The position numbers and the translations under genes are program-made. DNA of 64,000 nucleotides, taken from NCBI RefSeq assembly GCF_026151205.1, contig NC_087078.1, positions 5,535,675-5,599,674 of the forward strand, given 5' to 3'. A model generated the notes under the pieces. The model was not told the origin of the DNA. It saw only the letters and a program-made list of their open reading frames with translations, and made no database searches. This stretch comes from Bolinopsis microptera (taxonomy: Eukaryota; Ctenophora; Tentaculata; Lobata; Bolinopsidae). Shown here piece after piece: positions 26,933 to 55,594 of this stretch; positions within the stretch are counted from its first letter, which is position 1; every line of letters begins with the position of its first letter.

Positions 26933-27346
26933 TTAAAATTTTGTTTTTGTGTCGGGATCCATATTGAGATCGACTTGTTTTGATATGTGTTTTATGATAG
27001 ACATATTAGGTGTGTAAATAGGCGCTCTGTAAAGAACGATAGGTTTAATAAGACCATCAAAGAGTGTTGTTAGAGAGCGGAATGATAATTTGGATTTGTT
27101 TACTGAGCTTTTCATGGCATAGAGTGCACGCATGGCTTTCTTTTTGAGCTCAGTTCGGGCATTTGTGAATGAGCCGGATTTGTGTATTTCGATTCCTCGA
27201 TAACAGTATGACTCGACTTCTTCTAACAAGTGATTACCAATTTTGAGGGGAACCGGCTGATGATTATCAAAACGGGCATTAAATTTCATGAGTTTAGTTT
27301 TATCTGCATTAATTTCGACGCCCCATTCCGAGCAGAAATTGTTCAT
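26933..27346 (-). pseudogene. LINE ORF2 fragment (RT thumb region)
   Basis: 137 codons on the minus strand. The order WGVEINADKTKLMKF, YCYRGIEIHKSGSFTNARTE, LFDGLIKPIVLY matches the region just after the RT domain of the large LINE at 34870-35230 (GLEVNIKKTKI, YCYLGIIFHRNGSFTAANTE, LFDSLIKPILLY). It is a diverged relative of that family, truncated at both ends. It abuts the MULE fragment without a gap. Confidence 0.8.
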
Positions 27347-28070
27347 GAGTGACTACGAGAGAGCCCTGATCAACGCTGTGGAGACAACCTGGCCCACTAC
27401 TACCAAGAGAGGATGCTTCTTCCACCACAAGCAAGCACTTTGGAGGAAGATGCAGCAACATGACCTAGTCCCGGAATACAACGCAGAGAACTCAGCAGTA
27501 CGGAAGTACTTTCAGATGATCGGTACTGGATACCTGGACGCAGCTGAGAGAATGGATTCCTTTGCTGACTACTACGAACGTACCTGGGTCGGAACAAAAA
27601 CTTCCTCTTCCCTCTACACACACTGGATCTGGAATCAACGGGATGCTGTCATGGCCGGACTCCCCAGAAGTTCAAACATTGCTGAGGGTTGGCACAACGG
27701 TTTTCGATCCTTGATTGGCTGCACCAGGCACCAACCCTACTATCTGGCGATTTATCGACGTCCTGAAGAAGGAGCAGGATCTAACCCAGTGGAAGATCAA
27801 CCAGAAGATGCTCAGACAACCAACTCCTCGCCGACTGAAGAAGTGGACCGATTACGACCGTCGCTTGAACGCTGTGATTGATTGCTACGATGATTATGAC
27901 AGAATGGACTATTTGAAGTGTGTTGGAACAATGATTTTGATTTTGAATTGTTTTTTGTTGCACTTTAGTTCGTGTCGCACAACAGTCCAGGTAGCGTACT
28001 AAAGCGCGACAGTGTCGGCCTTGAAAATTCTCTGTCGCACTACAGTACGGTGTGCGACACGTACCCTAGT
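27345..28070 (+). mobile_element. MULE transposase C-terminal fragment, frameshifted
   Basis: From 27345 the frame reads SDYERALINAVE, then GCFFHHKQALWRKMQ and SSNIAEGWHNGFRSL, as in MULE transposases. Near 27715-27745 the reading shifts by one frame to NPTIWRFIDVLKKEQ and RRLNAVIDCYDDYDR, which continues the same protein family to ~27930. The upstream catalytic core is missing. After the ORF, GTGTCGCACA (27971) and its inverse TGTGCGACAC (28051) may be remnants of the terminal repeat. A dead copy. Confidence 0.75.
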
Positions 28071-28498: not shown

Positions 28499-30371
28499 AA
28501 GGGGAGATACACCAAAAACGTTTGTGCTCCGAACATCGATTTTATTTTATATTATGGTTAAATAGACAAAAAGAATAAGATTGCACACCTTCACAATTTT
28601 CTAAAAATATTCCCTCATCGAGAAACAAAATATTTTTCTTTTTCGAAAATTTTTAAAATTTGGAGAAGTCTGTCACTGTAATACCGATAGTTCTGCTATT
28701 TTAAAAGTTTTTCGACTGATTTTTTATTGAACATTACTTACAATCCGTACAAGAAGCCATTAAAAGGATTATATAATTGAACGATAAATGACGAAGTTAC
28801 AGACCAAACAAGGTCGAAAAAATAAAAATTGAAATTTTTCCCACTTCTAAAGTTGTACATTTCACCAATCACCCGGGTCAGCAGATATCGCTTCAAAAAT
28901 TCTTGTGAGTGTAGCTGATGATCATATCAAACTTTTTGGAGTAGGATTTCTCTCAGATTTGAGTTTTAAGCTATGCAATGTGGCCTCAAACGACTTAGTA
29001 AAATTCATCGTAAAAAAGGGCAAAAAAGGCAGATTTAAGGCTTAAAATGCCTATAACTCAAAAAGTATCAGTTTTTTTGAAATTATTTTTACAGAATCGT
29101 AATCAACTTGGTAAGACGAATCTTTTAGTACCAAGTAGGTGCTTTTAGAAGACAAATTGTCTTAAATAATTTTCAAGCTCGAACACAAGGGTCCCCCCTT
29201 GAATAAATTTTGTACAAATTGTACACATTTTTTTACAAATTTTGTGTCTTTAAATATTATAAATGTCGTACTAAAAGATTCGAAGCCCATAAGCAAATTT
29301 TTTTTAAATCGGTCGGTGGTAAGTGGTTTAATTGATGGTTTTGTACCAAAAATGTGACATAAAATAGCTTGAGCAGAACGGCAAGAGTTACGGGGCTTGC
29401 TCTCTCTCTCTCTCTCTCATTACTGTATATGTAGCGTCATAATTGGGTTAGCCCAGGAAGATTCGCTGTAATTTTATACCATAAGCTTATTAGGGGAGGA
29501 GGGACTGTTAGTGTTTGGGGTCTGTTTGGACTGCAGAGAGAGAGAGAGAGTTCATACTTTCAACACTACTATATAACAAATAATTTGAGGATGTACCATG
29601 GAAGTCTAGAGTACCCGCAACAAAAAATGCAGCTGTAAACGACTTGGTAACGGGGTGCATGTGAGCTCTGGGGGCCAGTGGCATCAGAAGACTGGCTATC
29701 AGCCTTGAAAATAAGATGAGTTCTTTAGATTCATGTCACATCTGCACTGCATCTTCAATCTCCATCACAATGACACAAACACTTTCTCCTTCACTACCCT
29801 ACCCTACCCTAGCCTAACCCTACCCCTCCCTCCTTTTACCTGTTGCGGGTACTCTGGACTGCATGGACATCCTTGAATAGAGATATTTTATATAGTAGTG
29901 TTGTGGTATTATACTGTGTACATGTATATATATTCTATCCTATATATCAATATATTCTATATCTATATTATATACTGTATCTTTTATATACAAACTTTTC
30001 CTTACCCCCGCCTCCCCTTCCTCTATAAATTGTACTCAAATCCCACACCCAACCTACTATTGACTTACTAAATAACCTCTATATCTCTACATTGGGCCAT
30101 AGCAGTCCACCCCGCTCCCTTCCCCTCCCTCCCCTATTCCACCAAGCACCAACATCTCTCCAAATCACATCATAAACTTTCATGTAATTAGACCTTGTGT
30201 TCCTTTTTTATTTTATTTTGAAAATGATTTTGTTTAACTTTACCTCTTTACCTGATATCACTCACCCCTGTCAAAACTGTGTTACTCTCATTATCTTATT
30301 TTCAGGCTGTTGGTTGGTTTGATGGTGCCCTTGCCCCCATCTCATTATGTGCTCCCTACCATCTATTCTTC
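28499..30371. other. Non-coding stretch leading into the LINE
   Basis: Holds (TC)n at 29400-29418 and (AG)n at 29536-29550, inverses of each other, and a 17-bp inverted pair around GAGTACCCGCAACA (29612) and TGTTGCGGGTACTC (29841). Pyrimidine-rich sequence with CCCTA units follows (29795-29835). The last several hundred bases are probably the 5'UTR of the LINE; its 5' boundary was not determined. Confidence 0.4.
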
Positions 30372-32561
30372 ATGCAAGACAGAACTCTTACTGAAGATAA
30401 TTCTCGATCAACGAGATCGAGAAACAACTCCTCTCCCCTGGATGGAAATGTTATTGACTTTACGAAACCTATCACCATCACAACGCCCGGATGCTATGTG
30501 CTTAGCAATCCTGACTCTGGTTGTAGAATCAGTCTCTTTCAGGATGTGTTTGCAAGCCAACTGTGTGACCAATTTTCCTCTGAAATCGAAAATACTGGCA
30601 CCCTTAAACAGTACAACACAATCCATAGGCAGTCTCAGGCGCCACTTCCAAGACTCTCGTCATGGTTTGGACCCGTAGACTATGCGTTCTCAGGAATCGT
30701 AATGAAAGCTAATTCTGTCTCCCAATGTCCTCGCCTTATTGCAGCATATCAGAACATGGCCGAAAACCTCTTCACACCCAACAACATTGATTGCTCCTCT
30801 GACTGCTTTTTGATAAACCAGTATAGGACTGGACGTGATTCCTGTGGTGAGCACAGTGACAATGAGCCAGAGGTTGACCTCTCAAAACCTGTCGTTACTC
30901 TGTCACTTGGCCAACAGCGCTGCATGCTCATCAGAGAGGCTAAGAACCCTGGAAATGCCATCACAGTCAAACTCGACCAGGGTTCAGTTCTTGTAATGCA
31001 TGGTACTGATTTCCAAAAGAAATATACGCACCAAATACCCAAAGATAATGTGATCACTAATTCACGTATCTCTGTGACCTACAGGACCTGCAGCTCCACT
31101 TTCCTAAGAAACCGAAGTGCCCTATCTACACCCCTGAAAGAGATATCTATCACTCCTATACTCGCCCCCAAGACCCCTGGAGTCTCAGGCTCACCATCGC
31201 TACCTCTGCACAACAGACGTAGATCCTCCTTGTCTCTGTCTAGCTTCTCACAAGTTGACACCAGCTCAGTTGGGTCTCCAGTGGCCAGTAGTTCTCCTTC
31301 CATAACCAGCAGTAAAACATCAGTCTCTGATAGTGATACATTGCCTCTCAGCATAGAAGCCATGCTTGAAGCCATTGATCTAATGAAAGACAAAACCGTG
31401 AAAAGCGAACTTTCTCGCCATGGCAGCACAAACTCTGGAACCCCTCTGCATTGTAAGAAAAGACTGAAGAAAGTTGCGAAAGCATGTCACAAACGCCTGA
31501 GCACGCTTCTTGTTGAGCCTCCAGTAGTCTCAGCTGAGCCCGAATGCGTTACCCATTCCCTCCAAACTTTGGAAAACTCTGTTATTGATCTACAATCCAA
31601 AATAAGTCTACAACATAGCACCCTCCAAACACTTGTCTTATGTTCTGACAGTAATTCCACTCAAAAAGGTAGTGTCAGCCCCCCTAACCTGTCTAATGAA
31701 CTCAACACTATGGACAAGAGACTTGAAAAGTTAGAGGATATAATGAGCAGCATAAACGAAAAACAACATGAAACTGCTACCTCCCTTAAAGCCTTCGAAG
31801 CAGATGTCACTGCAATCAAGAACAAAGTAGATGACTCTAAGGCCTGCCTACAGTCTCTCCAGCTTAATGACCGCACCACCCCATCCAGAAAAAAGCCATC
31901 ACCTCATCCTCAAAACCAGAACCACCCAACCCACAGCCCTAGTAGACAAACGCGAAAACCAAAAAAGGTTCTACTCCTACATGACTCCCAGATGAACAAC
32001 TTTCTACCTGAGTCATTTTCCTCTGGGTTCAAGGTGGAAAAAATGAAAGTAGGCTCTTATTATACTGACATGATAAAAGAGCACTGTATGAGAGATGTCA
32101 TTAAACAGCCAGAGGTCGACTGTTACATTCTCCAGCTTGGAGTCAACGACTACAGATACAGAACCTGCTCTGTTAATAAAGCGATTGAGGATGCAAAATC
32201 AGTCATCGATAAACTCCTCTCGAGCTCCAGTGCAAAGGTTGTCATCTCCCTACCCGCCCCAACCCCTGGATTAATCAGTGAACTTACCAACCAATTTGTC
32301 TCAGAAATAACCCTATTTGTCTCAGCTAAAAGAGGGTTAAGTGACTTTTACCGCCGCCTATATACTGTAAACAATACTGGGAACTTCTCCCGTGCCATCT
32401 CTGCTGCTGAGTCATCCCAAGACTCTCCTAACCCGTTGAAGGAGGACCAACTTCATGTCTCAGAGTATGGTTTGAAAAAACTTTGTTTGAATATTAAACT
32501 TGGCCTATACCGTGCCTTTGGTATGAGATCCCATAGAAAGCAGCCCCCTACAGAGCGTTAG
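30372..32561 (+). CDS. LINE ORF1: AlkB-like dioxygenase, coiled coil, SGNH hydrolase
   Basis: 729 aa from the first ATG. Residues ~30-245 look like an AlkB-type Fe(II)/2-oxoglutarate dioxygenase: iron ligands H161 and D163 (GEHSDNE), distal H220 (THQIPKD) and a closing SRISVTYR with the usual two Arg. A Ser-rich linker (~250-340) and helical segments (~340-510, including MDKRLEKLEDIMSSINEKQH) follow. Residues ~530-725 are an SGNH/GDSL-type esterase: Ser539 in HDSQ, N592 in QLGVND, D692/H695 in DQLHVSEYG. Esterase-bearing ORF1 proteins with coiled coils are known in CR1/L2-type LINEs; AlkB domains repair alkylated nucleic acids in cells and some plant RNA viruses. Here the fusion would act on the element's own RNP, by inference. 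The reading frame stays open upstream to 30279. Confidence 0.85.
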   Translation: MQDRTLTEDNSRSTRSRNNSSPLDGNVIDFTKPITITTPGCYVLSNPDSGCRISLFQDVFASQLCDQFSSEIENTGTLKQYNTIHRQSQAPLPRLSSWFGPVDYAFSGIVMKANSVSQCPRLIAAYQNMAENLFTPNNIDCSSDCFLINQYRTGRDSCGEHSDNEPEVDLSKPVVTLSLGQQRCMLIREAKNPGNAITVKLDQGSVLVMHGTDFQKKYTHQIPKDNVITNSRISVTYRTCSSTFLRNRSALSTPLKEISITPILAPKTPGVSGSPSLPLHNRRRSSLSLSSFSQVDTSSVGSPVASSSPSITSSKTSVSDSDTLPLSIEAMLEAIDLMKDKTVKSELSRHGSTNSGTPLHCKKRLKKVAKACHKRLSTLLVEPPVVSAEPECVTHSLQTLENSVIDLQSKISLQHSTLQTLVLCSDSNSTQKGSVSPPNLSNELNTMDKRLEKLEDIMSSINEKQHETATSLKAFEADVTAIKNKVDDSKACLQSLQLNDRTTPSRKKPSPHPQNQNHPTHSPSRQTRKPKKVLLLHDSQMNNFLPESFSSGFKVEKMKVGSYYTDMIKEHCMRDVIKQPEVDCYILQLGVNDYRYRTCSVNKAIEDAKSVIDKLLSSSSAKVVISLPAPTPGLISELTNQFVSEITLFVSAKRGLSDFYRRLYTVNNTGNFSRAISAAESSQDSPNPLKEDQLHVSEYGLKKLCLNIKLGLYRAFGMRSHRKQPPTER

Positions 32562-32613
32562 ATTAACCCTAAAATTCAAGAAAAAACAAGTATCACGAGA
32601 TCAAGTCGCTGTG

Positions 32614-35600
32614 ATGTCCTGGAACATCCAGGACAGCACAGGAGACGGGTCTAACAAATTTGAAAATAGCGAATTTTTGTCAATCCTCAAACAAGCTAAC
32701 ATTCTTTGTCTTCAAGAAACAAAGAAGCAAGTTAAGATTGAAGGATACCTCTCTTTTAATAGCAACCGCAAAAATTCACGCTCAGGGGGGTCTGCATTCT
32801 TGCTGAAAATGACCTAAGAAAAGGTGTCTCTAGTGTGCTTTGTAATGAATCTGATGACATTATTGTTGTTAAACTGGACATGAACTTTTTTAAACTTGAT
32901 TTTGACCTATTTTTGGTATGTTATTATATTAGCCCTGCATACTCGTCCTATGTCAAGAAGAATCCAGATTATACTGCTAATACCTTCTCTGCTCTTGACT
33001 CTATCTGTACCAGACTACGTCAAAAGGGAGAAGTTATTATGTGTGGCGATGCAAATGCAAGAACTGGAAAACTCCCAGACTATATCCTTTCCTGTAATGC
33101 ACCTGCCATCCATGACATCTATAACGACATTGGACTCGAGCACGACATAGAAGAACCAAGAAACAATTCTGACCTTACAATATCTGAACCCCACTGCCAA
33201 CACTTCCTTGACATGGTTATCAATAACCAACTCAAAATTCTCAATGGTCGTACCCTTGGGGACACCACTGGAAAAATGACCTGTCACAAATACAATGGAA
33301 GCAGTGTGGTTGACTATTTTGTAATCACCTCATGGGCAAGAGATCATGTAAACTCTCTCCAAGTAAAAGAGTTTACATCATACTCTGATCATTGTCCACT
33401 AGTCTTGAAACTCACTACATTTGAACCATTTGTCGCAAACTTCCAGCTCCCAGACTTTTCTAACTTTCCTTGTGGCTATAAGTGGGACAGCAACACCTCC
33501 CATTCACTATTTAAAAAAGCCCTTACCTCGCCCGAAATTATCAACAATCTGGAAAGCATTGTGACAAATGAATTTAGCAGTACTCTGGAGGGCAATCACG
33601 AACTGAACGATGCAGTCATAAAATGTCTCCACAGTGCTGCTGATATAGCCCTAAAAGTGAAAAAGCCTCCCAAAAATTCTGCCCGTAAAAAATGGTTTGA
33701 CCCACAAGTCAACTCCTCGCGGCGGAACCTTAATAGGCTAGCAAATCGGCTTGGTAGTAAGCACTGTAACAGTATCCTCAGACGAGAATACTTTAAGCAA
33801 CGCAACAAGCATAGCAATTTTGTAAACAGTAAGAAAGTAGCATTCCTTAAGAAGCTAAATGAAGCTATAGAAGAAGGTCACATACTCGACTGGAAAAAAT
33901 TTAAACGGCTCAAACAAGAACATGACACTAGCCCCTTACTTGACAAATTTGATTTAGCTAGCTTCCATGACTTCTTTGCATCCCTTTATAAAAAACCAGA
34001 CCAGGAGCCAGATCTCACTCACCACAATCACAAACATTACCCTGAACCACCAGATCTGGATATCCTAAATAAGCTCATGTCAGAATCTGAAGTGACCTCT
34101 GCCATCAAAAATCTCAAAAAAGGTAAAAGTTGCTCAAACGACTTGATATCCAACGAGATGCTTCAGAGCGTGACTCCGCTTTGTCTCAAAGCCATCCTCA
34201 AAAACTTCAACCACTCACTGGTCTCCGGTTACTATCCATGGCACACCAGCATCATTACTCCTATTTACAAGTCTGGCAACCCTTTCAGCCCGGACAACTA
34301 CAGAGCAATAGCTGTTGGTAGCTGTATGGGTAAACTGTTTTCTAGCATCTTACTTGAGCGTCTCCTGCACTTCAAAAAGCTCTACTGCCCTGACCCAAAA
34401 GAACAACTAGGGTTCTCGAAGGGTGCTCAAACAAATGACCACGTTTTTACCCTTAAGACAGTCATTGACAAATATACCAAGGTTAAGAAAGCTCGCATCT
34501 ATGCATGCTTTGTTGATCTAAGAAAGGCCTTTGACACTGTATGTAGGGACCTCCTTCTGCACAAAATCACATGCCTTGGAATAACTGGAAACTTCTTCAA
34601 TTGCCTAAGTGATATGTATAGAAACTCAATAGCTCATATAAAAATCTCCAAACTCTTGTCCCCTAATATTGACATTGGAAAAGGAACAGAGCAGGGACAC
34701 CCCCTATCACCGGACCTTTTTAAAATCTATATCAACGACTTGTCATCTCTCCTGAAATCTGTTGCTGATTATCCTATTCTAGCTGACGTCCTAATATCAC
34801 ATCTGCTCTGGGCTGACGATCTTGTCCTACTTGCCCTAAGTCCCAAGGCCTTGCAAGACAATATAAACATCCTATTCGACTTCTGTAACTCTATGGGCCT
34901 TGAAGTAAACATTAAAAAAACCAAGATTCTCATATTCTGCCCTCCTAAAAGAAAACAATCCTATGAAACATTCATTTTGGGAGGCCAGCCCATCCAACAC
35001 ACCGAAAAATACTGCTATCTTGGCATTATATTCCACAGAAATGGATCTTTTACAGCAGCAAATACTGAACTGAGGGCCAAGGCTCTCCGTGCTCTCTATG
35101 GCCTCAAAGGCAATATCGTCAAAGATGCCCTCTCTCACCGTTCACTATACATTCTATTTGACTCTCTAATAAAACCGATACTGCTCTATGGCTGCCAAAT
35201 CTTATGTCCTCACTCAAAAACCATGAGATACCTCTCCAAAACAGATAGCAAAGCCAACCCCCAGCATACTCTCAGGTACATCTCACAAGACCACTATGAA
35301 AGATTCCACCTTAGGTTTATCAAGTGGTCCTTGTCTGTCCATTCAAAAGCATCAAATATAGGCTGCTGGGGCGAAAGTGGGCGCCACCCCCTCTTCTTTG
35401 AAGCCTGCAAACTTGCAATAGATTTCTATAGTCGCCTTGAAAGCACTGAAAATGAACTTCTCTCCGCTGCATTTCACGAGCAGATTATGCTGGGCCTTCC
35501 TTGGTACACCAACATCTCTAATCTTCTCACCAAATATAACTTCCCCCACTCATCCTCTTCAAAATCCAAGCTCTCTACCCAAATCAGTCACAACATGAGG

Positions 35601-36101
35601 GAAGAATTTGTGGATACCTGGAAATCTGCCAAGGCATCCTCACCTAAATTAGAATTCTACAATCAAATTAAACATGATTTTGAACCAGAAACATACTTAG
35701 GAGTGGTTAAGATCCCCGATGCTCGGAAAAGCTTAACAAGGTTTCGTATTAGCTGCCACAATCCTTACATTGAGAGGGGCCGTTACGAAACCCCTCTAGT
35801 ACCAAGAGAACATCGATGGTGCACTTTTTGCTTTTTCAGCAAGGGGCTTAAGCCTATTGAGGACGAAATTCATGTTCTAACTGACTGTTTACTCTACTCC
35901 TCAATTAGAGAAAAATTTAACTTCCATCCCGAAAATATTACTGACCTAGCCGGTTTGCTATCCGATAAAACACTAGACCCTACAAAATTTACTGCCACAG
36001 CAAGAGCAATCCATTCAATTCTCTCTGTGAACGAAAATTTTACAGCCTACTATAAGAGCCCAGATTTCCACTCAAATACTGGCCAATGCATAATGCTATA
36101 G
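32614..36101 (+). pseudogene. LINE ORF2: AP-type endonuclease and reverse transcriptase, one frameshift
   Basis: Starts 52 bp after ORF1. The endonuclease begins SWNIQDSTGDG and LCLQETKK (catalytic Glu), and the frame is lost at 32790-32817. It resumes in another frame just before 32835 with GDANARTG, VVDYFVIT and SDHCPLV, so the fold is complete apart from a one-base-type shift. The RT shows SPDNYRAIAVG, ACFVDLRKAFDTV, GTEQGHPLSPDLFKIYINDL and WADDLVLLA. After the thumb, a Cys-His cluster (CTFCFF, then EIHVLTDC) resembles the C-terminal zinc motif of L2/CR1-like ORF2s. It is otherwise intact over ~1150 codons, so the insertion is probably fairly young. Family placement in the CR1/L2 group is by motif only. 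Confidence 0.88.
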
Positions 36102-36270
36102 GACCTCAAAAATAGTATTATAAAACATTTCTATTTTATCCCTACACATTTGTAAATAACTAGAATTGTGTAACCTTAAATTATTTCAGAATTATAACTA
36201 TTGTGAATTCTGCAATAAAATAATTATCACTTTTGTATCCTTGTATCCTTGTTGTATCCTTGTATCATAC
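36102..36270 (+). repeat. LINE 3'UTR and TTGTATCC microsatellite tail
   Basis: A short 3'UTR ends in repeated TTGTATCC units at about 36232-36266 (one unit with an extra TTG). CR1/L2-type LINEs typically end in a short microsatellite instead of poly(A), so this marks the 3' end of the element. Confidence 0.75.
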
Positions 36271-40600: not shown

Positions 40601-43600
40601 CTTATTTGGACGACCGCTTAATTTCCCGGCCCTTGATTGACGATTTCAATCCTTCCCAGCTCGTAGCTTTCGTACTATCTCGTCACGGTGGTGGTGAGAT
40701 AGTACGAAATGATGCGAGAAGCATCATTTCAGACAATCCCACAATTTGCATTGGAAATATGTTACCATTTCAGAGTTTTTGTGGGAATTTAAGAAAGCAA
40801 GTCTTATTAAGGTGGTAAACGGAATGAAAACAGTTACTGATAACGAAGGTCTTCTAGTTGTAACTGTGATAAGTAACAAGGATCAGAAAGTAATAAACGG
40901 AACCGTCTGCAAGGATTATTTTGACTGGCATTCAGCAAACCTGTTTTGCCAGTCTATTGGCTATATGTTTGCTGAATGGGGAAGCTACCCAAGAAACTTG
41001 GAATATGCCCCTAAGTAAATTTTGCGTTCATTGTTCAACATTCTAAAAGATATCCAAAATACTATGAAAAGTAATATTTGTACACTTAAATAACCTGGTT
41101 CAACTTGATCATTTAATCAAAAATCTGAGCTTCTTTGCGCTGAATAATTATGTGTACTTTATAAAACAGTGACGAAACATCGCTAGCTTAAATCAATTAA
41201 AGGTTATTATTAATAATAATGATTATTACTAATAATAATAGTATTCACTGTTTAGATCTTGGCTGAATAAAACAAAAGGAGGTGTACCGATTATAATGGA
41301 TGATGTGCGATGTAGGCTGAACGATACAAATGTAACAATGTGTGATATGAGGATAATGAAACACAACTGCGACTATCAAGATAACATCTGGCTCCACTGT
41401 TTTAATCAAACAGGTATAATACAAAAATATGTAATTGAAATGCTGTTTTTATTGTCACATTTCTTAACTATTGATTAATGCGTAATGAGTTCGATTATGG
41501 TGAGTTAATAAGAAAGATTTACATTCATACATTTTTCAGGGTGCACTGACATGAAAACAATGAAACCTAAAGAACAAAATTGTTCCACCGTAAATATACG
41601 TGGATTTTTGAAAAATATCTGCTTCGATGTTAGAGAAAAACACTTTTATCACATGTGTGGGAACACAAGCATATCATATGAAGTGAGTAGAACTTTGTAC
41701 AGAAGCACTGGTTTCTACAAGCTATCCAGTGTTTCGTCTGTGTGTGATAATGACCCTTATGTTTATCAGGCATGCGGGTTCAGCACCAAAATAACAAGAA
41801 ACTCACACTTCATGTGTGGTGGCTACTTTCTTACTGATAATAAACAAGGAGTAAATAAATTTGTTGAGTGTAACAACGAGTGTGACATTGGTAAAAATGT
41901 CTCAAGCGGAGAAAAATCAAAGCGTCCTCGCAAAAGAGACGCAACTATATGCAACGACAAGTGTGATGAGAGGAATTGTGAAGATGAGAGCAAGTGTAAC
42001 GGAATAAAATACGGAATTCGTTGTACCGTAAATCGTATCATGACTTATATACCTCCATCCTGGATATGTGACGGACATGCGACATGTGACGTTGGGGAGG
42101 ATGAGGAGCACTGTGGGTTAATTGATAACACAACACAAACCTGTATGCATTTCACTTTCAGTACTACTTATACTGCACGTAAGAGTAAAAAGATTGTCCC
42201 CATGTTGAGCAACACCAAGTGTAGTGTGTTTGATTTTAGAGATAGTTGGGTACACCCATACTGTGCTGACTTCCTAGACCAAACAAACTGCACTGATGTG
42301 ACCAGAGTGGGTGGTTACTGTTTAATGGGAGGTTACCTGTCTGGTGTATCTAAGTACGTGCTCTGTGATAGTCCCAATTTAGAGAACGATCAAAATACTG
42401 AACCAGCTCCTATCACTCTTTGTGACGATAATCTCAATAATGAGTGTTTTTCGCCGTCTAGACATTGTGTGGTTCACAAACACAAACTCTGTGACGGAGT
42501 TAGTGATTGCATAGACGGTAGTGATGAAAAAGACATCTGTCGTTTTACTACTGTGGGTCACTTTAAATGTAACCGCACTTTTAATGTTGAAAAATACATG
42601 GAAATACCTGTATCTTGGATATTGGACACCCAAACTGACTGTTTAGATGGCGAGGATGAAAAACAGATTGGTTACTGTTTGATTAATGGTTCTATGTCTA
42701 TCGTCTCAAAGTACGTGATCTGTGACAGTCATTTGAATGGCCGCACACGAACTCCGTTATGCGACGATAAGTTAGATACTGAATGTATCTCTTCATCTAC
42801 TTTCACAGACTGTGTGGTCCACAAACACAGATTTTGTGACGGAGTTTATGACTGTAGTGATGGTAGTGATGAATCTCACGATATGTGTAGTCGTACTACA
42901 TCAGATAACTTTCAGTGTAAACGCATTTTCGGTCCTAATAAGTACTACGAGGTACCATTCTCCTGGATATGGGACAACCAAACTGATTGTGTGGACGGTA
43001 AAGATGAAGAAAGAAAGGATATGTGGAAATCGTGTGGAGATCAAATTGAAGGGACATATAGGGTGGTATTACGAAATGAAACTTGCAAAAACGTATTTCT
43101 GTGTACAGGATTACATTACGTTGAGTTCGATCTTCTTTGCGACTATGTTACCATGGATTCGTGTCAAATTGAAAATAAGGTATGTATGATATCGCGAGAT
43201 TTCCCAAAAATCGAAACGTCTGCTGTGAATGAAACTTGTTCCGCACGGGATTTGTGTAAATCAAAAGACGTGTTTAAAGATACAACATGTCATATCAGGG
43301 AATTTAAAAGATCGTCAGGGGATGTTTTTGGTGTCAGAACAATGCTTAATGCTCCTACCTCCAAAGTGGACTGTAGTCTTCTATTTGGAGAATACTATGT
43401 GTTCTTGAGCTGTATGGATTTGTGTCTAGATTCCATTTGTCCTCTTGCAAATAAAATAATTCAATATGATTCATGTCCGCGACAGTATCCTGACCGAGTT
43501 TACACTCTCGCAAACAACTCTTACCTGACTTTTGTCGTTAAGTCTGAGGCAGGTGAATATGAGAATAACTATTTCCAATGCGCAAACAATATATGTGTAA

Positions 43601-45015
43601 TGTACAGCCAGGTATGTAACCTTGTGAACGATTGTGGTGACATGTCAGACGAACTAAATTGTACAAATCAAATGGTTTGTGAAAACACTAAAGATCTTCC
43701 AGACGCAAAGAAGCAGCTGATTGCTTACTCTCAGAAATGTGACGGGATATTTGACTGTTTTGACCTATCCGATGAATGTAATGAGTCTTGCGGCAAGGAA
43801 ATCCTTGACAACTGGTTGTTGAAAGTCATATGCTGGCTTTTTGGGATTTCGGCGGTCATTATTAATGGGATAACAGTAACCAAGGTAGTATGTTCTATCA
43901 AAGAATGTAAAACAGGTGGTGTCTTGTATACCAAGGTGCTTATTATCCTCATCGGAATAGGGGATTTTCTAATAGGCGTTTACTTGATAGCACTCGCTGT
44001 CTTCGATAGTATCATTCAGGGAAAGACTTACTGTAGGAACCAAGCTGAATGGTTATCTGGGAACGTTTGTGCTATCTTGGGAGTAGTAAGCACAACAGGG
44101 TCACAGATTTCCCTTTTTGCTATGACTGCATTGAGTCTCATAAGGATGTCTGGAATTATAGGGAGTTCTTCTATGACTGGTTCGACACTTGCTAATAAAA
44201 AAGAGCAGACCAAAGCGATTTTGATGGTGTTGACAATCGTTGCTACTTCACTCACAATAGCTTGTGGACCCTTAGCTCCTGTACTCGAAGATTATTTTGT
44301 GCAAGGAATGTTTTATAACCCTAACTACAAGGTCTTTATTGGATTTCCCAACAAAGTCAAACATATCGAGATTCTCAAAGAGTACTATGGGCCAAAAAAC
44401 ATTTCCGAAGGGTTAACCTGGAATGAGATTGGGGATAAGGTGGACGGAATGTTTAGCCAAGATTACGGTTACTTGAGCAGAAGTCCTGTTCACTTTTACG
44501 GAAATGATGGTGTATGCCTGTTCAAATATTTTGTTCGTCGAGATGATCCAAGAAGAAGCAGAGGATCAGAAGCAAATGGTGTATCAGACATCAAAGGAAA
44601 TGCGATGGTGTGGGTCATGTTGACTATTAACCTTTTCTGCTTTGTCCTAATATCTCTGTCCTACATGATTATCGGCATCCTTAATTCCAAATCGTCAAAG
44701 GACTCAGGTCAGGACGACAACCCAGTGAGAGCACGAGAAAACAGGGACATACAAATCAGGATTGCGAGTATAATTGGTACAGATTTCGCCTGTTGGGTGC
44801 CATTCATCATTATAAGTGCTTTACACAATCTTGAGTTGATTGATGCTACTTATTGGTACGTTACATTTGCGATGTTTATGTTACCTATAAACGCAGTCAT
44901 CAACCCTCTGCTGTATGACAACACTATAAAAGAGTTTCTCTCTGACAAGGTTACCAGCATTTTCATATCCTTGCGGCAGTTAACAACTCGGACAACTATA
45001 GAAGTTGAGGGTTAA
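37673..45015 (+). CDS. SRCR-LDLa-seven-transmembrane receptor
   Basis: Seven exons join in phase: 37673-37742, 38040-38381, 38707-38745, 40225-40584, 40774-41014, 41256-41413, 41540-45015 (4686 nt, 1561 aa plus stop). A signal peptide is followed by two clear SRCR domains (GERGLLLYKGSTVCDD; the second begins with the same GERGLLLYK), a diverged SRCR-like unit (NGTVCKDYFDW), then a Cys-rich region with about seven LDLa-type modules (for example HKLCDGVSDCIDGSDE). The C-terminal ~430 residues form a rhodopsin-class 7TM domain: TM1 from WLLKVICWLFG, TM2-3 with GDFLIGVYLIALAVFD, a long second extracellular loop, TM6 with FACWVPF and TM7 with NAVINPLLYD. TM2/TM6/TM7 resemble LGR/relaxin-type receptors, which also carry LDLa, but no leucine-rich repeats are seen. 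Ligand unknown. Introns host a Gypsy scrap and a minisatellite. Confidence 0.83.
38880..39330 (+). pseudogene. Gypsy-type LTR retrotransposon scrap
   Basis: The frame at 39113-39319 reads KTGDDVKIKRNFLDNPKL, then GPFIVHKKIRP and a closing KIYHCRKSQ. This resembles the chromodomain-like or integrase C-terminal tail of Gypsy pol proteins. The preceding frames are broken. It lies in the intron before the second SRCR exon. Confidence 0.5.
39475..40030 (+). repeat. 39-bp minisatellite, open in two forward frames
   Basis: About 14 copies of CCCCTCCGCAAGCAACCCAC + TTACCATCTTCTAGCACAA. Because 39 is divisible by three, frames stay open across the array: one reads LRKQPTYHLLAQP, the other the mucin-like PPQATHLPSSSTT. 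Neither frame has an upstream ATG or a splice acceptor joining it to the receptor, so I treat it as non-coding. Confidence 0.92.
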
Positions 45016-49204: not shown

Positions 49205-52200
49205 CGATTTAACACCGCAATTCCAGTCGCAAGCCTGGGACCACTACTAGCATAGTCACAACATCTACAAAGCTGCCATATAGCCTGACTGACAATTTTC
49301 TCGACTGACTGACAATGTTTCTTCTTTTTCCCCATTTAGAATACAAAGATTAGTACATTTTAGCTTATGATTAATATTATATTTTTACCTATAGTTTACT
49401 TAGATTACGTCCGTATCATGGTATCAAGTACTGGTGGTCGGTTCTTCCGCCCCGTTGGATACATAATTGATAGCTTTTCTTGATATTGCTCTATAATTAC
49501 ATTTATATCTCTCCCGGCCATTGGTTCCGAGATTTGGTTGATCTTTGTTTTCTTGGGCGCCCTCCTTGAAGTCTTGTTGTTGTACATACATCTCCTGATT
49601 TATCCTGTATTTACCTGTTTATTTCATTTTCTGGCGTGAGCTGTCCGCCATGCTACGGTACGAGAAACAGCGGCAGTGCAAGATCCGGTTCTAAGAGATT
49701 TTTATGGTCGCGAAGAATCTCGCCAGGCTACACTGCGTCGGTGGGAGAACTATTTAGGTTCATGACATCTAACGCCCGCCCAATCATGGCAGCCCCATGA
49801 CAATAGGTTGATGTCCGACCCGTTGTCCTTGGCCTATCTCGAGTCGTTGGGTCTAGGCGGAAACGCCGAAAGGGATGATGTTACCTTCTTGACTTAAACG
49901 TAATGGTAAATTTTTCTCAAAATCCTTGAATAAATGGGTAACCCCTAGTAATGTCTTTTCTAGCACTTTTAGATGTTGCAATGGTAGAGGTTGTCTCACT
50001 TGCAACAGTTTTAATCCTGTTAATACATTTAGGAGCAGTACTTTTAATAATGATTTTATCTTTGGACATACAAATTTTATATTTAATTGTAAAACTAATA
50101 ATGTTATTTATGTTATTACCTGTTCTACCTGTAAAAAACAATATGTTGGAGAAACAACTCAACCACTTCATAAAAGAGTCAATGGCCACAGAAATTGTGT
50201 CAAAGCCAAATCATCCACATTTTTATATGAACATTTTAATATTCCTGGTCACGTCTTCTCAGATGCTTCCATACAGATTGTAGATTATGTTGATTCTGAC
50301 ATGTCCACCGATGTCAAAAATGATTTACTTCTCCTGGAGGATTACTGGATAGAGAAGCTTGGGACAGCATTCCCTCTTGGTCTTAATGACAAGAAGAAAG
50401 GAACGGGCAACATCTCCCAAGATCGGGTTATGAATTATTTTAGTGGACAGATTGCTCGATACAAACGTGGCAGAGGGAATGGAAAGAAGAAAGTTCAGCC
50501 TAAGAAGTCTCTGGATACCATAGAGTCTGATATTAACAGGCTGAAAGATAACATCTCTTCAGAACATTCCATATACAAAACATTAAAATGTTATAGCTTA
50601 TCAGATTTAGACACTCTCTACTCTTTGAGTCAAAATAATTCAGGATTGATTTACAACGTATGTTCCTCTTTCTGTTCAACATTTTCCCCCAAATACCATC
50701 AGAACAAATCTGAATCCAGTAATAGAGAATTTATAATTGTTCCATTTAATTGCAAATTCATTGATAATCTTAACCTAAAATCTATTTTCTCTGACACCTC
50801 AGTCATTGATTTGCTTCCCATTTTGATTCAGTCTTTTACACCATTACAGATTTATTATGAGTATAATGATCCTATAAGTCTTTCTATTTGTAACTATGCT
50901 TCATTCTTAAAGAAACTTTCTATTTCTGATATTAAATCTATTTTAGGTAGTCCATGCGATTGTCACTCCTCCCCTTTCAATTATCCTCCTCATGGACATG
51001 TAGTTACTGGTAATTTAGATATTGTTGATAATGTTGAACTTATGGAAGTACTTTCCTACGGTTGTAAATACAGAATTCCCACATTTAAGTCTCCAGATGA
51101 GATATATATGTCAGTTACCGAAGCTGTCGATAAATTTATAAAATCAAAAAGTAGAAAGTACTGTCAAAAAGAAGTAAAGTTCAGCGATTGGAAGGAAAAA
51201 GTGTTATCAATAGTTTCCAATCGTATTGAATATTACAAGAAAAACTTTCCTGAAACATTTGAAATAAAAGAAAACACACTGGAAAAAGATGATGTTAAAA
51301 GAAGTCTTAAATTGCTGAAAAGTAAATACATTATTTGTAGTATCGACAAAGCTTCTGGTAATTTTTCATTTATTTGTAAAAAGTTTTATGTAAAAACTCT
51401 TGTCAATGAAATGGGTTTTGATCCTAATACTCTAGAATGTATAGGTAATGATACATATAAACCCTGTAGCGAAGACGAGACTCATTATGTCAATAAAATA
51501 TCTGAGAGTCTAAAGGAGAGATTTAATGTACAAGTTGAAGATAAAAACTTGCGACTAGCACGCATCTTCTGGAACCCTAAGCTTCATAAGAACCCTTACA
51601 AGGCGAGGTTCATTGCAGGTGCCCGTTTTTGCGTTACGAAACAACTTAACGTCCAAGTTAACTGTTGTCTGAAACTTTTGAGGAAATACTTCAAGAAATA
51701 CTGCGAGGCAATCTACAACAACAGCGGTATAAACATGTTTTGGAGCATAGATTCCTCAAGTGAATTCCTTGAAGCTATCAAAAATAGCGATGTTTATAAT
51801 ATACAAGTATATGATTTTACTACTCTTTATACCAGATTAGACTTGATTGAAGTAGAGAATATGATTAATGAAGTTGTTGATTTAATATTTTCAGACCGTA
51901 ATAGATATATTTGTATTTCTAAAAGAGACAGTAATACATGTTTCTTTTCCAATAAAACCTATGATTGTCATGCCTGCTTTAGTCAAGATGACCTAAAAGA
52001 GGCTGTTAAATTTATTATTTATAACACTTATGTCGTCTTCGGTGGGATTGTATTCATACAAACCAAGGGTATTCCTATGGGCGGAAATTCAAGTTCCCCT
52101 ATAGCTGATCTCACTGTTGGCAAAAAGGAATTTAATTATATGAAACGTTTACTTCAGGAAAAGAAAATGGGATTAGCAAAGATATTATCCAATAATAAAC

Positions 52201-53235
52201 GATATGTTGACGATTTATCTATTATTAACTACCTTTACTTTCATAAATTGATTAAAGATATTTATCCTAATTCATTGGAGATGGAGCGAGCTGGTTCCAA
52301 TAATAAAATCATTAACTACCTTGATTTAAATATTAATATTTCCACAGAAGGACTAGAAATATCAGTGTATAACAAAACTGATGATTTTAATTTTCATGTT
52401 GTATCCCTTACATTTCCTCACAGTAACATCCCAACCGAGGTTGGCTACAACGTTTTTTCAAGTCAAGTTCTTAGATATGGTAATGTTTGCACTAGATTGG
52501 ATATCTTTACCTCCCATCTTCACAAAATATTCAAAATTCTAATTGATAGAGGATATAGCCGTGATAGACTGATTAAAGGCATTAAACGTTGTCTGAGGAA
52601 ATATGATAACGTTTTCAGGAAGTTCGGTATTCTAGATGACCGTAACATTATTAAAGAACTCCCCTGATATCTTTTGATTTATTGAAACACGGGTACTAAC
52701 TCTGCTAAACTGAACAAATTCTGAAACTTAGGTGAATAAGTGTACAACGTGCTAAACCGAAGTTCAGACTGACCAGTGAAAATGGGCGAGCGTACCAAGT
52801 GTCATTTTAATTAGAAGTTTTAGTCAGTGATTTATTATTGAAGCTTGTAATTACAATATCTAATGCTCCTATAAATACTTTAATTAATTGTTTGTCCCGT
52901 TATTCTTTTTCCTTCCTCTTTTCCTTGTCATCCCCTTTAGTTTTAAGATTCTTGCTATAAATGGCTACAGCTAACACTATTAATGCTAAGTACCAAACAA
53001 CAAGTGGGAGGTGGATCGTTGGTACCATTAAATCGATTTAACACCGCAATTCCAGTCGCAAGCCTGGGACCACTACTAGCATAGTCACAACATCTACAAA
53101 GCTGCCATATAGCCTGACTGACAATTTTCTCGACTGACTGACAATGTTTCTTCTTTTTCCCCATTTAGAATACAAAGATTAGTACATTTTAGCTTATGAT
53201 TAATATTATATTTTTACCTATAGTTTACTTAGATT
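49205..53235 (+). mobile_element. Penelope-like element with N-terminal GIY-YIG (Naiad-type order)
   Basis: A ~4.0-kb element bounded by direct repeats of 202 bp at 49205-49406 and 53034-53235 that I read as identical base for base. Between them is one long plus-strand ORF. Direct pseudo-LTRs are a hallmark of Penelope-like elements. A 16-bp unit (CGATTTAACACCGCAC) is repeated once more just outside the left copy, at 49189-49204. The element lies next to the STIM coiled-coil exon, in the antisense direction. Confidence 0.85.
49893..52667 (+). CDS. Penelope-like protein: GIY-YIG endonuclease then reverse transcriptase
   Basis: The frame is open from 49893 (after TGA) to 52667, ~924 codons, with no early in-frame ATG. 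The N-terminal ~160 residues hold a Cys cluster (CNGRGCLTC) and a GIY-YIG nuclease: NVIYVITCSTCKKQYVGET, catalytic Arg in HKRVNGHR, catalytic Glu near LLEDYWIEKLGT. A ~400-residue linker follows, then the RT: ARIFWNPKLHKNPYKARFIA, DFTTLYTRLDL, GIPMGGNSSSPIADL, YVDDLSIINY, NYLDLNINIS. In canonical Penelope proteins the GIY-YIG comes last; the order here is that of the permuted Naiad/Chlamys group, with a Cys-rich finger inside the nuclease. The missing ATG could mean a 5' frameshift (an out-of-frame ATG is at 49904) or a separate upstream ORF. No internal stop, so the copy is recent. Confidence 0.85.
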   Translation, partial: LKRNGKFFSKSLNKWVTPSNVFSSTFRCCNGRGCLTCNSFNPVNTFRSSTFNNDFIFGHTNFIFNCKTNNVIYVITCSTCKKQYVGETTQPLHKRVNGHRNCVKAKSSTFLYEHFNIPGHVFSDASIQIVDYVDSDMSTDVKNDLLLLEDYWIEKLGTAFPLGLNDKKKGTGNISQDRVMNYFSGQIARYKRGRGNGKKKVQPKKSLDTIESDINRLKDNISSEHSIYKTLKCYSLSDLDTLYSLSQNNSGLIYNVCSSFCSTFSPKYHQNKSESSNREFIIVPFNCKFIDNLNLKSIFSDTSVIDLLPILIQSFTPLQIYYEYNDPISLSICNYASFLKKLSISDIKSILGSPCDCHSSPFNYPPHGHVVTGNLDIVDNVELMEVLSYGCKYRIPTFKSPDEIYMSVTEAVDKFIKSKSRKYCQKEVKFSDWKEKVLSIVSNRIEYYKKNFPETFEIKENTLEKDDVKRSLKLLKSKYIICSIDKASGNFSFICKKFYVKTLVNEMGFDPNTLECIGNDTYKPCSEDETHYVNKISESLKERFNVQVEDKNLRLARIFWNPKLHKNPYKARFIAGARFCVTKQLNVQVNCCLKLLRKYFKKYCEAIYNNSGINMFWSIDSSSEFLEAIKNSDVYNIQVYDFTTLYTRLDLIEVENMINEVVDLIFSDRNRYICISKRDSNTCFFSNKTYDCHACFSQDDLKEAVKFIIYNTYVVFGGIVFIQTKGIPMGGNSSSPIADLTVGKKEFNYMKRLLQEKKMGLAKILSNNKRYVDDLSIINYLYFHKLIKDIYPNSLEMERAGSNNKIINYLDLNINISTEGLEISVYNKTDDFNFHVVSLTFPHSNIPTEVGYNVFSSQVLRYGNVCTRLDIFTSHLHKIFKILIDRGYSRDRLIKGIKRCLRKYDNVFRKFGILDDRNIIKELP

Positions 53236-55594
<2,359 letters not shown>

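What the first reader, a model, noticed from the sequence alone, without database searches (positions are those of the whole stretch)
30372..32561. LINE ORF1 combining an AlkB-like dioxygenase with an SGNH esterase
Seen: HxD (H161/D163), distal H220 and the RxxxxxR-like SRISVTYR close an AlkB-type active site, followed by a coiled coil and an SGNH triad (S539, N592, D692/H695). All key residues appear intact. Known: AlkB domains remove alkyl lesions from nucleic acids, including in some plant RNA virus replicases; esterase ORF1s occur in CR1/L2 LINEs. Inference: the element may carry a repair or demethylation activity for its own RNA or cDNA, or counter host RNA modification. I cannot tell whether this fusion has been described.
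Basis: partly seen in the sequence, partly recalled or inferred. Interest (0 to 1): 0.88.

Follow-up and report, generated by a model that had tools for sequence, protein, structure and literature searches.

The report
AlkB-esterase protein in comb-jelly transposons
In a comb jelly, a jumping gene encodes a protein that joins an intact-looking AlkB-type nucleic-acid demethylase to a lipid esterase, and the same pair recurs in many other jumping genes of that genome, including a quite different DNA-transposon type, which suggests that these elements may guard or clean up their own RNA or DNA.

Summary
The window is Bolinopsis microptera (ctenophore). ORF1 (30372-32561) of a young LINE holds an AlkB-type 2OG-Fe(II) domain (PF13532, E 2.3e-23; nearest solved relatives ALKBH3, then ALKBH2) with H161, D163, H220, R232, R238 intact, a coiled coil and an SGNH esterase (S539, G590-N592, D692, H695). 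These residues are invariant in 23 aligned rows (the window and 22 homologues, 40-94% identical). Against its 81% relatives AlkB is the most constrained domain (dN/dS about 0.05; esterase 0.15; linker 0.3). I read 15 LINE ORF1 types with AlkB+SGNH, 14 of them in five deep ORF2 lineages; AlkB domains occur at 332 loci or more, three host-like. Helitrons of this genome, and three database Helitrons, carry SGNH and AlkB in the Rep-helicase frame. One LINE pair shares 98% of ORF2 but 55% of ORF1, breaking at the ORF junction: ORF1s are swapped. Ten open-access paper searches turned up one AlkB-bearing transposon lineage (orchid Gypsy). Most likely function, untested: an ALKBH2/3-like demethylase acting on the element's single-stranded intermediate.

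The parts
29551..36269 (+). LINE copy (approximate limits)
   Evidence: L047 copy aligns over window 30073-36269 at 98.5%; copies L004, L005 and L006 extend the match to 29551
30372..32561 (+). ORF1, 729 aa: AlkB - linker - coiled coil - SGNH
   Evidence: stop-to-stop frame from 30228
30507..31097 (+). AlkB-type 2OG-Fe(II) dioxygenase domain, residues 46-242 (Pfam match 62-238)
   Evidence: PF13532 2.3e-23; ALKBH3/ALKBH2; dN/dS about 0.05 against 81% relatives
30852..30860 (+). HxD iron ligands H161, D163
   Evidence: invariant in 23 rows
31029..31031 (+). distal iron ligand H220
   Evidence: invariant
31065..31085 (+). RxxxxxR (R232, R238), 2-oxoglutarate binding (role recalled)
   Evidence: invariant
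31557..31886 (+). coiled-coil region, residues about 396-505 (limits chosen by me)
   Evidence: weak matches to coiled-coil models; dN/dS 0.10-0.17 against or among 81% relatives
31968..32531 (+). SGNH/GDSL esterase domain, residues 533-720 (S539, G561, G590-N592, D692, H695)
   Evidence: S539, G561, G590, N592, D692, H695 invariant columns; aligned with the SGNH blocks of 13 other transposon ORFs
32614..32817 (+). start of the ORF2 endonuclease, in another frame than the rest of ORF2: this copy's ORF2 is frame-broken; copy L047 has one uninterrupted frame of 1191 codons
   Evidence: read from the sequence; frames
32763..36101 (+). ORF2 open frame: endonuclease remainder and reverse transcriptase
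   Evidence: PF14529 1.3e-9, RVT_1 2e-28 at residues 505-756
36230..36269 (+). 3' tail of short repeats (TTGTATCC-like), no poly(A) seen
   Evidence: read from the sequence; 3' limit of the match to L047

Best explanation
SHOWN (by sequence): ORF1 of this LINE is a two-enzyme protein, an AlkB-type 2OG-Fe(II) dioxygenase plus an SGNH esterase joined by a linker and a coiled coil. Its active-site residues are intact and it is under purifying selection, strongest on AlkB when compared with its 81% relatives. The AlkB+SGNH pair is carried by several deep LINE lineages and by Helitrons of this ctenophore, and LINE ORF1s are exchanged as units. INFERRED: the coiled coil multimerises ORF1p on the element's RNA and the esterase ties the particle to membranes or lipids, as measured for the ZfL2-1 ORF1p. 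The AlkB domain, being ALKBH3/ALKBH2-like, oxidatively removes N-methyl groups, most likely N1-methyladenine and N3-methylcytosine, from the element's own single-stranded nucleic acid. That would be the RNA template in the LINE, where such lesions stop reverse transcription (recalled), and the single-stranded DNA intermediate in Helitrons. A shared need to keep a long single strand clean would explain why two unrelated transposition mechanisms keep the same enzyme.
For: Domain and nearest relatives. Ligands invariant in 23 rows of the window family and across eight further ORF1-type proteins, including the HxDxE motif that is shared with ALKBH3. ALKBH5 and FTO do not appear among the listed PDB matches. 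dN/dS by domain, window against L007, window against L008, L007 against L008: AlkB 0.050, 0.059, 0.053; SGNH 0.155, 0.136, 0.162; coiled coil 0.131, 0.166, 0.096; linker 0.29, 0.30, 0.33. Helitron AlkB 0.13-0.27 in five pairs against 0.44-0.62 for its linker. Helitron frame with GDSL 8.6e-11, AlkB 2.4e-17, Helitron_like_N 2.8e-23, PIF1 3e-24; three database Helitrons with these four domains. ORF1 swap at the ORF1/ORF2 border. ZfL2-1 ORF1 esterase binds liposomes and its coiled coil dimerises (PMC3905857, abstract and section 12 read). A Gypsy-borne AlkB demethylates m6A RNA in vitro (PMC9289625, abstract and discussion read).
Against: No activity, substrate, expression or structure data. The substrate inference rests on distant sequence kinship to ALKBH3/2. 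In the other families the Pfam match starts only at model position 44-66, so lid regions that set substrate choice may differ. RNA binding by ORF1p is not shown, and the ZfL2-1 esterase did not bind oligo-(A) RNA (PMC3905857 abstract). AlkB is not always the most constrained domain: window against L005 AlkB 0.124, SGNH 0.112 (few changes); L044 against L022 AlkB 0.23, SGNH side 0.18; in Helitron pairs AlkB and SGNH are about equal where both could be measured. Human L1 is reported to be suppressed, not helped, by the eraser ALKBH5 (PMC7873242, start of abstract in the listing). P0096, an isochorismatase protein with no transposon domain seen, falls among the transposon AlkBs, so LINE AlkBs may have been acquired twice.
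Confidence: 0.55

Rival explanations
1. The AlkB domain erases a host silencing mark, such as m6A/m1A on element RNA or 6mA on element DNA, to escape host control rather than to repair damage.
For: The orchid Gypsy AlkB has m6A demethylase activity and its authors argue for a role in host surveillance of transposons (PMC9289625). Presence in LINEs and Helitrons fits a common host defence; a DNA mark would be common to both classes.
Against: Nearest relatives are ALKBH3/ALKBH2; ALKBH5 and FTO are not among the listed matches. In human cells m6A is reported to favour L1 and ALKBH5 to suppress it (PMC7873242, abstract start in listing). No evidence here that ctenophore transposons carry such a mark.
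Confidence: 0.25
2. The AlkB fold is kept for nucleic-acid binding or particle structure, not catalysis.
For: No RRM or CCHC match was listed by Pfam for the LINE ORF1s scanned, so some other part must bind RNA. One database sequence, P0091, shows Q at the first iron ligand.
Against: Invariance of the iron and 2-oxoglutarate ligands and dN/dS of about 0.05 point to catalysis.
Confidence: 0.08
3. The dioxygenase acts on proteins or lipids in concert with the esterase.
For: Both an AlkB and an SGNH profile match 93 of 101 database proteins; some 2OG enzymes hydroxylate proteins (recalled).
Against: Sequence kinship is to the nucleic-acid AlkBs; HxDxE is shared with ALKBH3.
Confidence: 0.05
4. 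A passenger gene fragment or an assembly artefact.
For: None found.
Against: AlkB loci on contigs C1 to C13, Mnemiopsis homologues, purifying selection.
Confidence: 0.01

Closest known systems
Type IV (esterase) LINE ORF1, e.g. zebrafish ZfL2-1 (PMC3905857; classification PMC4120745)
   Same: Coiled coil plus SGNH esterase upstream of an EN-RT ORF2; PDB 4c1b (ORF1-encoded protein) matches the SGNH half of profile A2 at E 0.0095
   Different: No AlkB domain is mentioned: 'alkb' and 'dioxygenase' occur 0 times in the text of PMC4120745
Phalaenopsis Ty3/Gypsy AlkB (2-ODD) ORF (PMC9289625)
   Same: A transposon with a retained AlkB domain; m6A demethylase in vitro
   Different: [quoted passage not shown] no esterase mentioned in the parts read
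AlkB of plant RNA viruses (Alphaflexiviridae, Betaflexiviridae, Closteroviridae), as cited in PMC9289625
   Same: Selfish RNA replicon with AlkB; RNA repair proposed
   Different: Viruses, not transposons
Human ALKBH3 / ALKBH2 (PDB 8jnr, 3rzh)
   Same: Best sequence matches; same Fe and 2OG ligands; HSDxEP motif with ALKBH3
   Different: Host repair proteins; the ctenophore has its own ALKBH2 (L009, 3.9e-60) and ALKBH3 (L010, 2.5e-39)
texim SGNH genes captured by fish Helitrons (PMC4021074)
   Same: Helitron associated with an SGNH hydrolase
   Different: Passages read describe a captured gene and no AlkB

Membership tests
AlkB-like 2OG-Fe(II) dioxygenase | Pfam 2OG-FeII_Oxy_2 over curated cut-off | tested here: met
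   83.9 bits against 31.2
AlkB-like 2OG-Fe(II) dioxygenase | HxD...H and RxxxxxR ligands intact and conserved | tested here: met
   H161 D163 H220 R232 R238 invariant in 23 rows
AlkB-like 2OG-Fe(II) dioxygenase | double-stranded beta-helix fold | not testable with these tools
   structure prediction switched off
AlkB-like 2OG-Fe(II) dioxygenase | demethylase activity | not testable with these tools
   needs biochemistry
ALKBH5/FTO m6A erasers | closest sequence kinship to ALKBH5 or FTO | tested here: not met
   neither among the listed PDB matches; ALKBH3 and ALKBH2 lead, ALKBH1, ALKBH8 and AlkB follow weakly
LINE (non-LTR retrotransposon) | ORF2 with endonuclease and RT | tested here: met
   this copy's ORF2 is frame-broken, L047 is uninterrupted
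LINE (non-LTR retrotransposon) | dispersed copies, many 5'-truncated | tested here: met
   63 matches, many holding only C-terminal parts of ORF1
LINE (non-LTR retrotransposon) | target-site duplications | not tested
   -
CR1/L2 (Jockey superfamily) clade | RT groups with named CR1/L2 references | not testable with these tools
   no named reference RTs held; window ORF2 is 22-26% identical to the 13 other LINE ORF2s compared
Type IV esterase ORF1 | SGNH blocks with catalytic S, G, N, D-H | tested here: met
   no Pfam GDSL match in this copy
Helitron (for L049 and L042) | Rep (Helitron_like_N) and PIF1 helicase | tested here: met
Helitron (for L049 and L042) | terminal sequences and AT insertion site | not tested

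The most novel reading that the evidence does not exclude
AlkB+SGNH is a shared transposition accessory module of ctenophore mobile DNA. It sits in LINE ORF1s, is swapped between LINE families, and passed between LINEs and Helitrons, so that RNA-moving and DNA-moving elements now use the same nucleic-acid demethylase on their single-stranded intermediates. It would be a new ORF1 type and, as far as the searches here show, the first demethylase common to class I and class II elements.
Probability: 0.45. Interest if true: 0.92.

Novelty: new variant of a known kind. Interest (0 to 1): 0.83.

Why it matters
It would be a new type of LINE ORF1 (dioxygenase plus esterase), present at hundreds of loci in an animal from one of the earliest branches, and shared with Helitrons. 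It makes a standing question testable: whether chemical damage or methyl marks on transposon nucleic acid limit transposition strongly enough for elements to carry their own eraser. The genome also offers an internal contrast, an esterase LINE without AlkB (L057).

Tried and rejected
Viral relatives: a scan of IMG/VR with A1 found none; a scan with A2 could not be made. L011/L048, an AlkB frame next to an SGNH frame, was considered as the source of the module. It groups with host ALKBH3 (99/92) and its SGNH has one full copy plus ten partial matches, so it looks host-like; a link is unproven. Clade naming of the reverse transcriptases was dropped for lack of references. The idea that the GDSL hits whose frame lengths were absent from my AlkB lists are esterase LINEs without AlkB was mostly wrong: of four taken, L056 has PF13532 (4.8e-16), L054 and L055 share its H..D..E..H..R..R columns although Pfam does not call PF13532 there, and L057 shows no AlkB.

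Tree caveats: the long Helitron branch makes its exact place inside the LINE AlkBs unsure; the group of 39 rows apart from host ALKBH3 (95/84) holds P0096, in which no transposon domain was seen and which joins the second LINE group, so two acquisitions by LINEs are not excluded. For this reason I lowered the novel case from 0.50 to 0.45 on checking. The mutual order of the five ORF2 groups is unresolved.

Papers: ten searches of the open-access library. I read the abstract plus one section of PMC3905857 and PMC9289625; passages only of PMC4120745, PMC5408684, PMC12221973, PMC8141815 and PMC4021074; listings with abstract starts for the rest (PMC7873242 included). Subscription papers and Repbase Reports were not searched, so 'not described' means not found there.

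In one search the profiles were built from 14 of my own ORFs; the strict HxD...RxxxxxR pattern was met in 89 of 101 database proteins. Of the 12 misses, P0068, P0077, P0079 and P0097 had both motifs by the looser pattern, P0091 has Q for the first H, and seven (P0021, P0080, P0090, P0092-P0095) were not placed.

Full report
WHAT IS THERE. The 729-aa frame at 30372-32561 carries an AlkB-type dioxygenase domain: PF13532 at residues 62-238, E 2.3e-23. Its nearest solved relatives are ALKBH3 (1.5e-14) and ALKBH2 (3.8e-7); with a 23-row profile these become 1.3e-28 and 1e-14. Residues N149, Y151, H161, D163, E165, H220, R232, R238 and S539, G561, G590, N592, D692, H695 are present and invariant in the alignment of the window with 22 homologues, 40-94% identical to it. 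A second frame with endonuclease and reverse-transcriptase matches follows. The element spans about 29551-36269, and a 98.5% identical copy lies on another contig. In the window copy the first part of the endonuclease is in another frame than the rest of ORF2; copy L047 has one uninterrupted frame. The genome is that of the ctenophore Bolinopsis microptera, inferred from contigs C9 and C2 having the same lengths as the contigs of two NCBI-named Bolinopsis microptera proteins; two Mnemiopsis leidyi proteins are 49% and 54% identical.

IT IS UNDER SELECTION. Between the window family and its 81% relatives (domain dS about 0.6-1.0) the AlkB domain has dN/dS 0.050 and 0.059, and between those relatives 0.053. 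The SGNH domain has 0.14-0.16, the coiled coil 0.10-0.17 and the linker 0.29-0.33. Against the near-identical copy L002 AlkB is again lowest of the larger domains (0.041), against L005 it is not (AlkB 0.124, SGNH 0.112; few changes). In other LINE families AlkB has 0.16-0.23.

IT IS NOT ALONE. PF13532 matches 151 places of this genome in one capped search. Joined with rows, at least 332 separate loci match an AlkB domain; three of them (L009-L011) look host-like (see Tried and rejected for how rows were chosen). I read 15 different LINE ORF1 types in full: the window and L039, L040, L041, L043, L044, L045, L046 (Pfam), L050-L053, L054-L056. Each has an AlkB segment and, after it, an SGNH segment. 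PF13532 is called in 13 of the 15; in L054 and L055 the AlkB part rests on alignment with L056. Pfam GDSL matches are sub-threshold or missing in several, but the SGNH blocks of the window, L039-L041, L043-L046, L050-L053 and two Helitrons align with Ser, G-x-N and D..H. L040, L044 and L045 also show a PHD finger below cut-off. One GDSL-bearing LINE, L057, has a coiled coil and SGNH but no AlkB match. Some families look young: with the L041 ORF1 as query 10 of 76 matches are full length, 98-100% identical and without stops, four of them with the same top score on four contigs; with the L043 ORF1, 22 of 82 are full length and uninterrupted at 96-100% and 16 more at 65-67%.

FIVE DEEP LINE LINEAGES. 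The ORF2 proteins of 14 of these 15 types (L050's is broken and was not placed) fall into five groups whose members are about 21-33% identical across groups in local alignments: the window; L041; L039/L043/L051 (with L046); L054/L055/L056; L040/L044/L045/L052/L053. The mutual order of the groups is unresolved. The window ORF2 is 22-26% identical to the others. L039 and L046 give a direct view of ORF1 exchange: ORF2 98% identical, ORF1 55%. At DNA level the identity is 97.7% from position 2737 of L039 on, right before ORF2, and about 70% or less upstream; five further copies (L014, L015, L019, L026 of one type, L031 of the other) show the same break.

HELITRONS. L049 holds one frame of at least 3214 aa with Lipase_GDSL_2 (14-179, 8.6e-11), AlkB (512-645, 2.4e-17), DUF6570, Helitron_like_N (1798-1998, 2.8e-23) and PIF1 (2435-2641, 3e-24). 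Ten loci of the genome match the Helitron-type AlkB at 72-100%; Rep and helicase were read in two (L042, L049). Three database proteins of 2478-3181 aa at 47-74% identity carry the same four domains. The order is SGNH then AlkB, the reverse of the LINEs. Helitron AlkB has dN/dS 0.13-0.27 against 0.44-0.62 for the Pro/Ala-rich linker; where SGNH could be measured it was about equal to AlkB. In the AlkB tree the transposon domains stand apart from host ALKBH3 (95/84), in a group that also holds P0096, an isochorismatase protein; the Helitron domains sit with the LINE family L050 and P0101 inside the second LINE group (100/100, but on a long branch). A member of the L050 family is 37% identical to the Helitron domain over about 205 residues. 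This suggests passage of the domain between a class I and a class II element; the direction is unknown.

DISTRIBUTION. Three protein searches gave 101 database proteins; 93 of 101 match both an AlkB and an SGNH profile. Only Bolinopsis and Mnemiopsis are named among them, so confinement to ctenophores is not shown. One IMG/VR scan found no relative of the window family.

HOW IT MAY WORK. Shown: sequence competence, selection, module sharing. [quoted passage not shown] the coiled coil multimerises it; AlkB, being of the ALKBH3/2 kind with the HxDxE motif, removes N1-methyladenine and N3-methylcytosine from single strands. These lesions block reverse transcription (recalled), and single-stranded DNA is exposed to them during rolling-circle transposition (recalled). 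Host-mark removal is the main rival; the orchid Gypsy AlkB, which demethylates m6A in vitro (PMC9289625), is the precedent, while for human L1 the eraser ALKBH5 is reported as a suppressor (PMC7873242, abstract start in the listing).

COMPARED WITH WHAT IS KNOWN. ORF1 types I-V of the Jockey superfamily include PHD and esterase types; the paper's text holds neither 'alkb' nor 'dioxygenase' (PMC4120745, passages). That paper finds esterase ORF1s only in two vertebrate groups, whereas PMC3905857 reports them in CR1, RTEX and Penelope-like elements over many animal phyla. GDSL ORFs occur in rotifer LTR elements and Terminons, again with no 'alkb' in the text (PMC5408684), and SGNH genes ride on fish Helitrons (PMC4021074, passages). 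In the listings I saw no paper that describes AlkB in a LINE or a Helitron; most listed papers were seen only as title and abstract start. I therefore file it as a new variant of a known kind: LINEs and Helitrons with a new enzyme module.

Noticed in passing
L039 and L046 (C5:18133300-18139900; C3:20034500-20041800): Two LINE families share a 98% identical ORF2 but have 55% identical ORF1s, with a sharp break just before ORF2: a clean case of ORF1 swapping.
   Followed up: yes
L048 3455-4345 and 5054-5914 (C5:22263000-22272500): AlkB frame akin to host ALKBH3, followed on the same strand by a separate SGNH frame with one full copy in the genome; possible host relative or domesticated remnant of the module.
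   Followed up: partly
L057 566-1843 and 2573-6001: LINE with coiled coil plus SGNH ORF1 but no AlkB match; its endonuclease start looks L1/Tx1-like (recalled resemblance).
   Followed up: partly
P0096, P0097 (database proteins): 1162-1179 aa proteins listed with isochorismatase and AlkB domains (P0096: AlkB 2e-34); origin unknown; P0096 falls among the transposon AlkBs in the tree.
   Followed up: partly
P0101 (database protein): 2249 aa protein with an N-terminal AlkB, 63% identical to the Helitron query over 23% of it, but no other Pfam match at E 0.01.
   Followed up: no
window 49893-52667 +: 924-aa frame with a GIY-YIG match (1.5e-5).
   Followed up: no
window 55496-57474 +: Reverse transcriptase split over two overlapping frames, probably a broken retroelement.
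   Followed up: no
window 27288-27881 +: MULE transposase fragment upstream of the LINE (5.8e-6, just under cut-off).
   Followed up: no
window 41512-45015 +: 1167-aa frame with an LDL-receptor A repeat and a rhodopsin-type 7TM end, a large-ectodomain receptor candidate.
   Followed up: no
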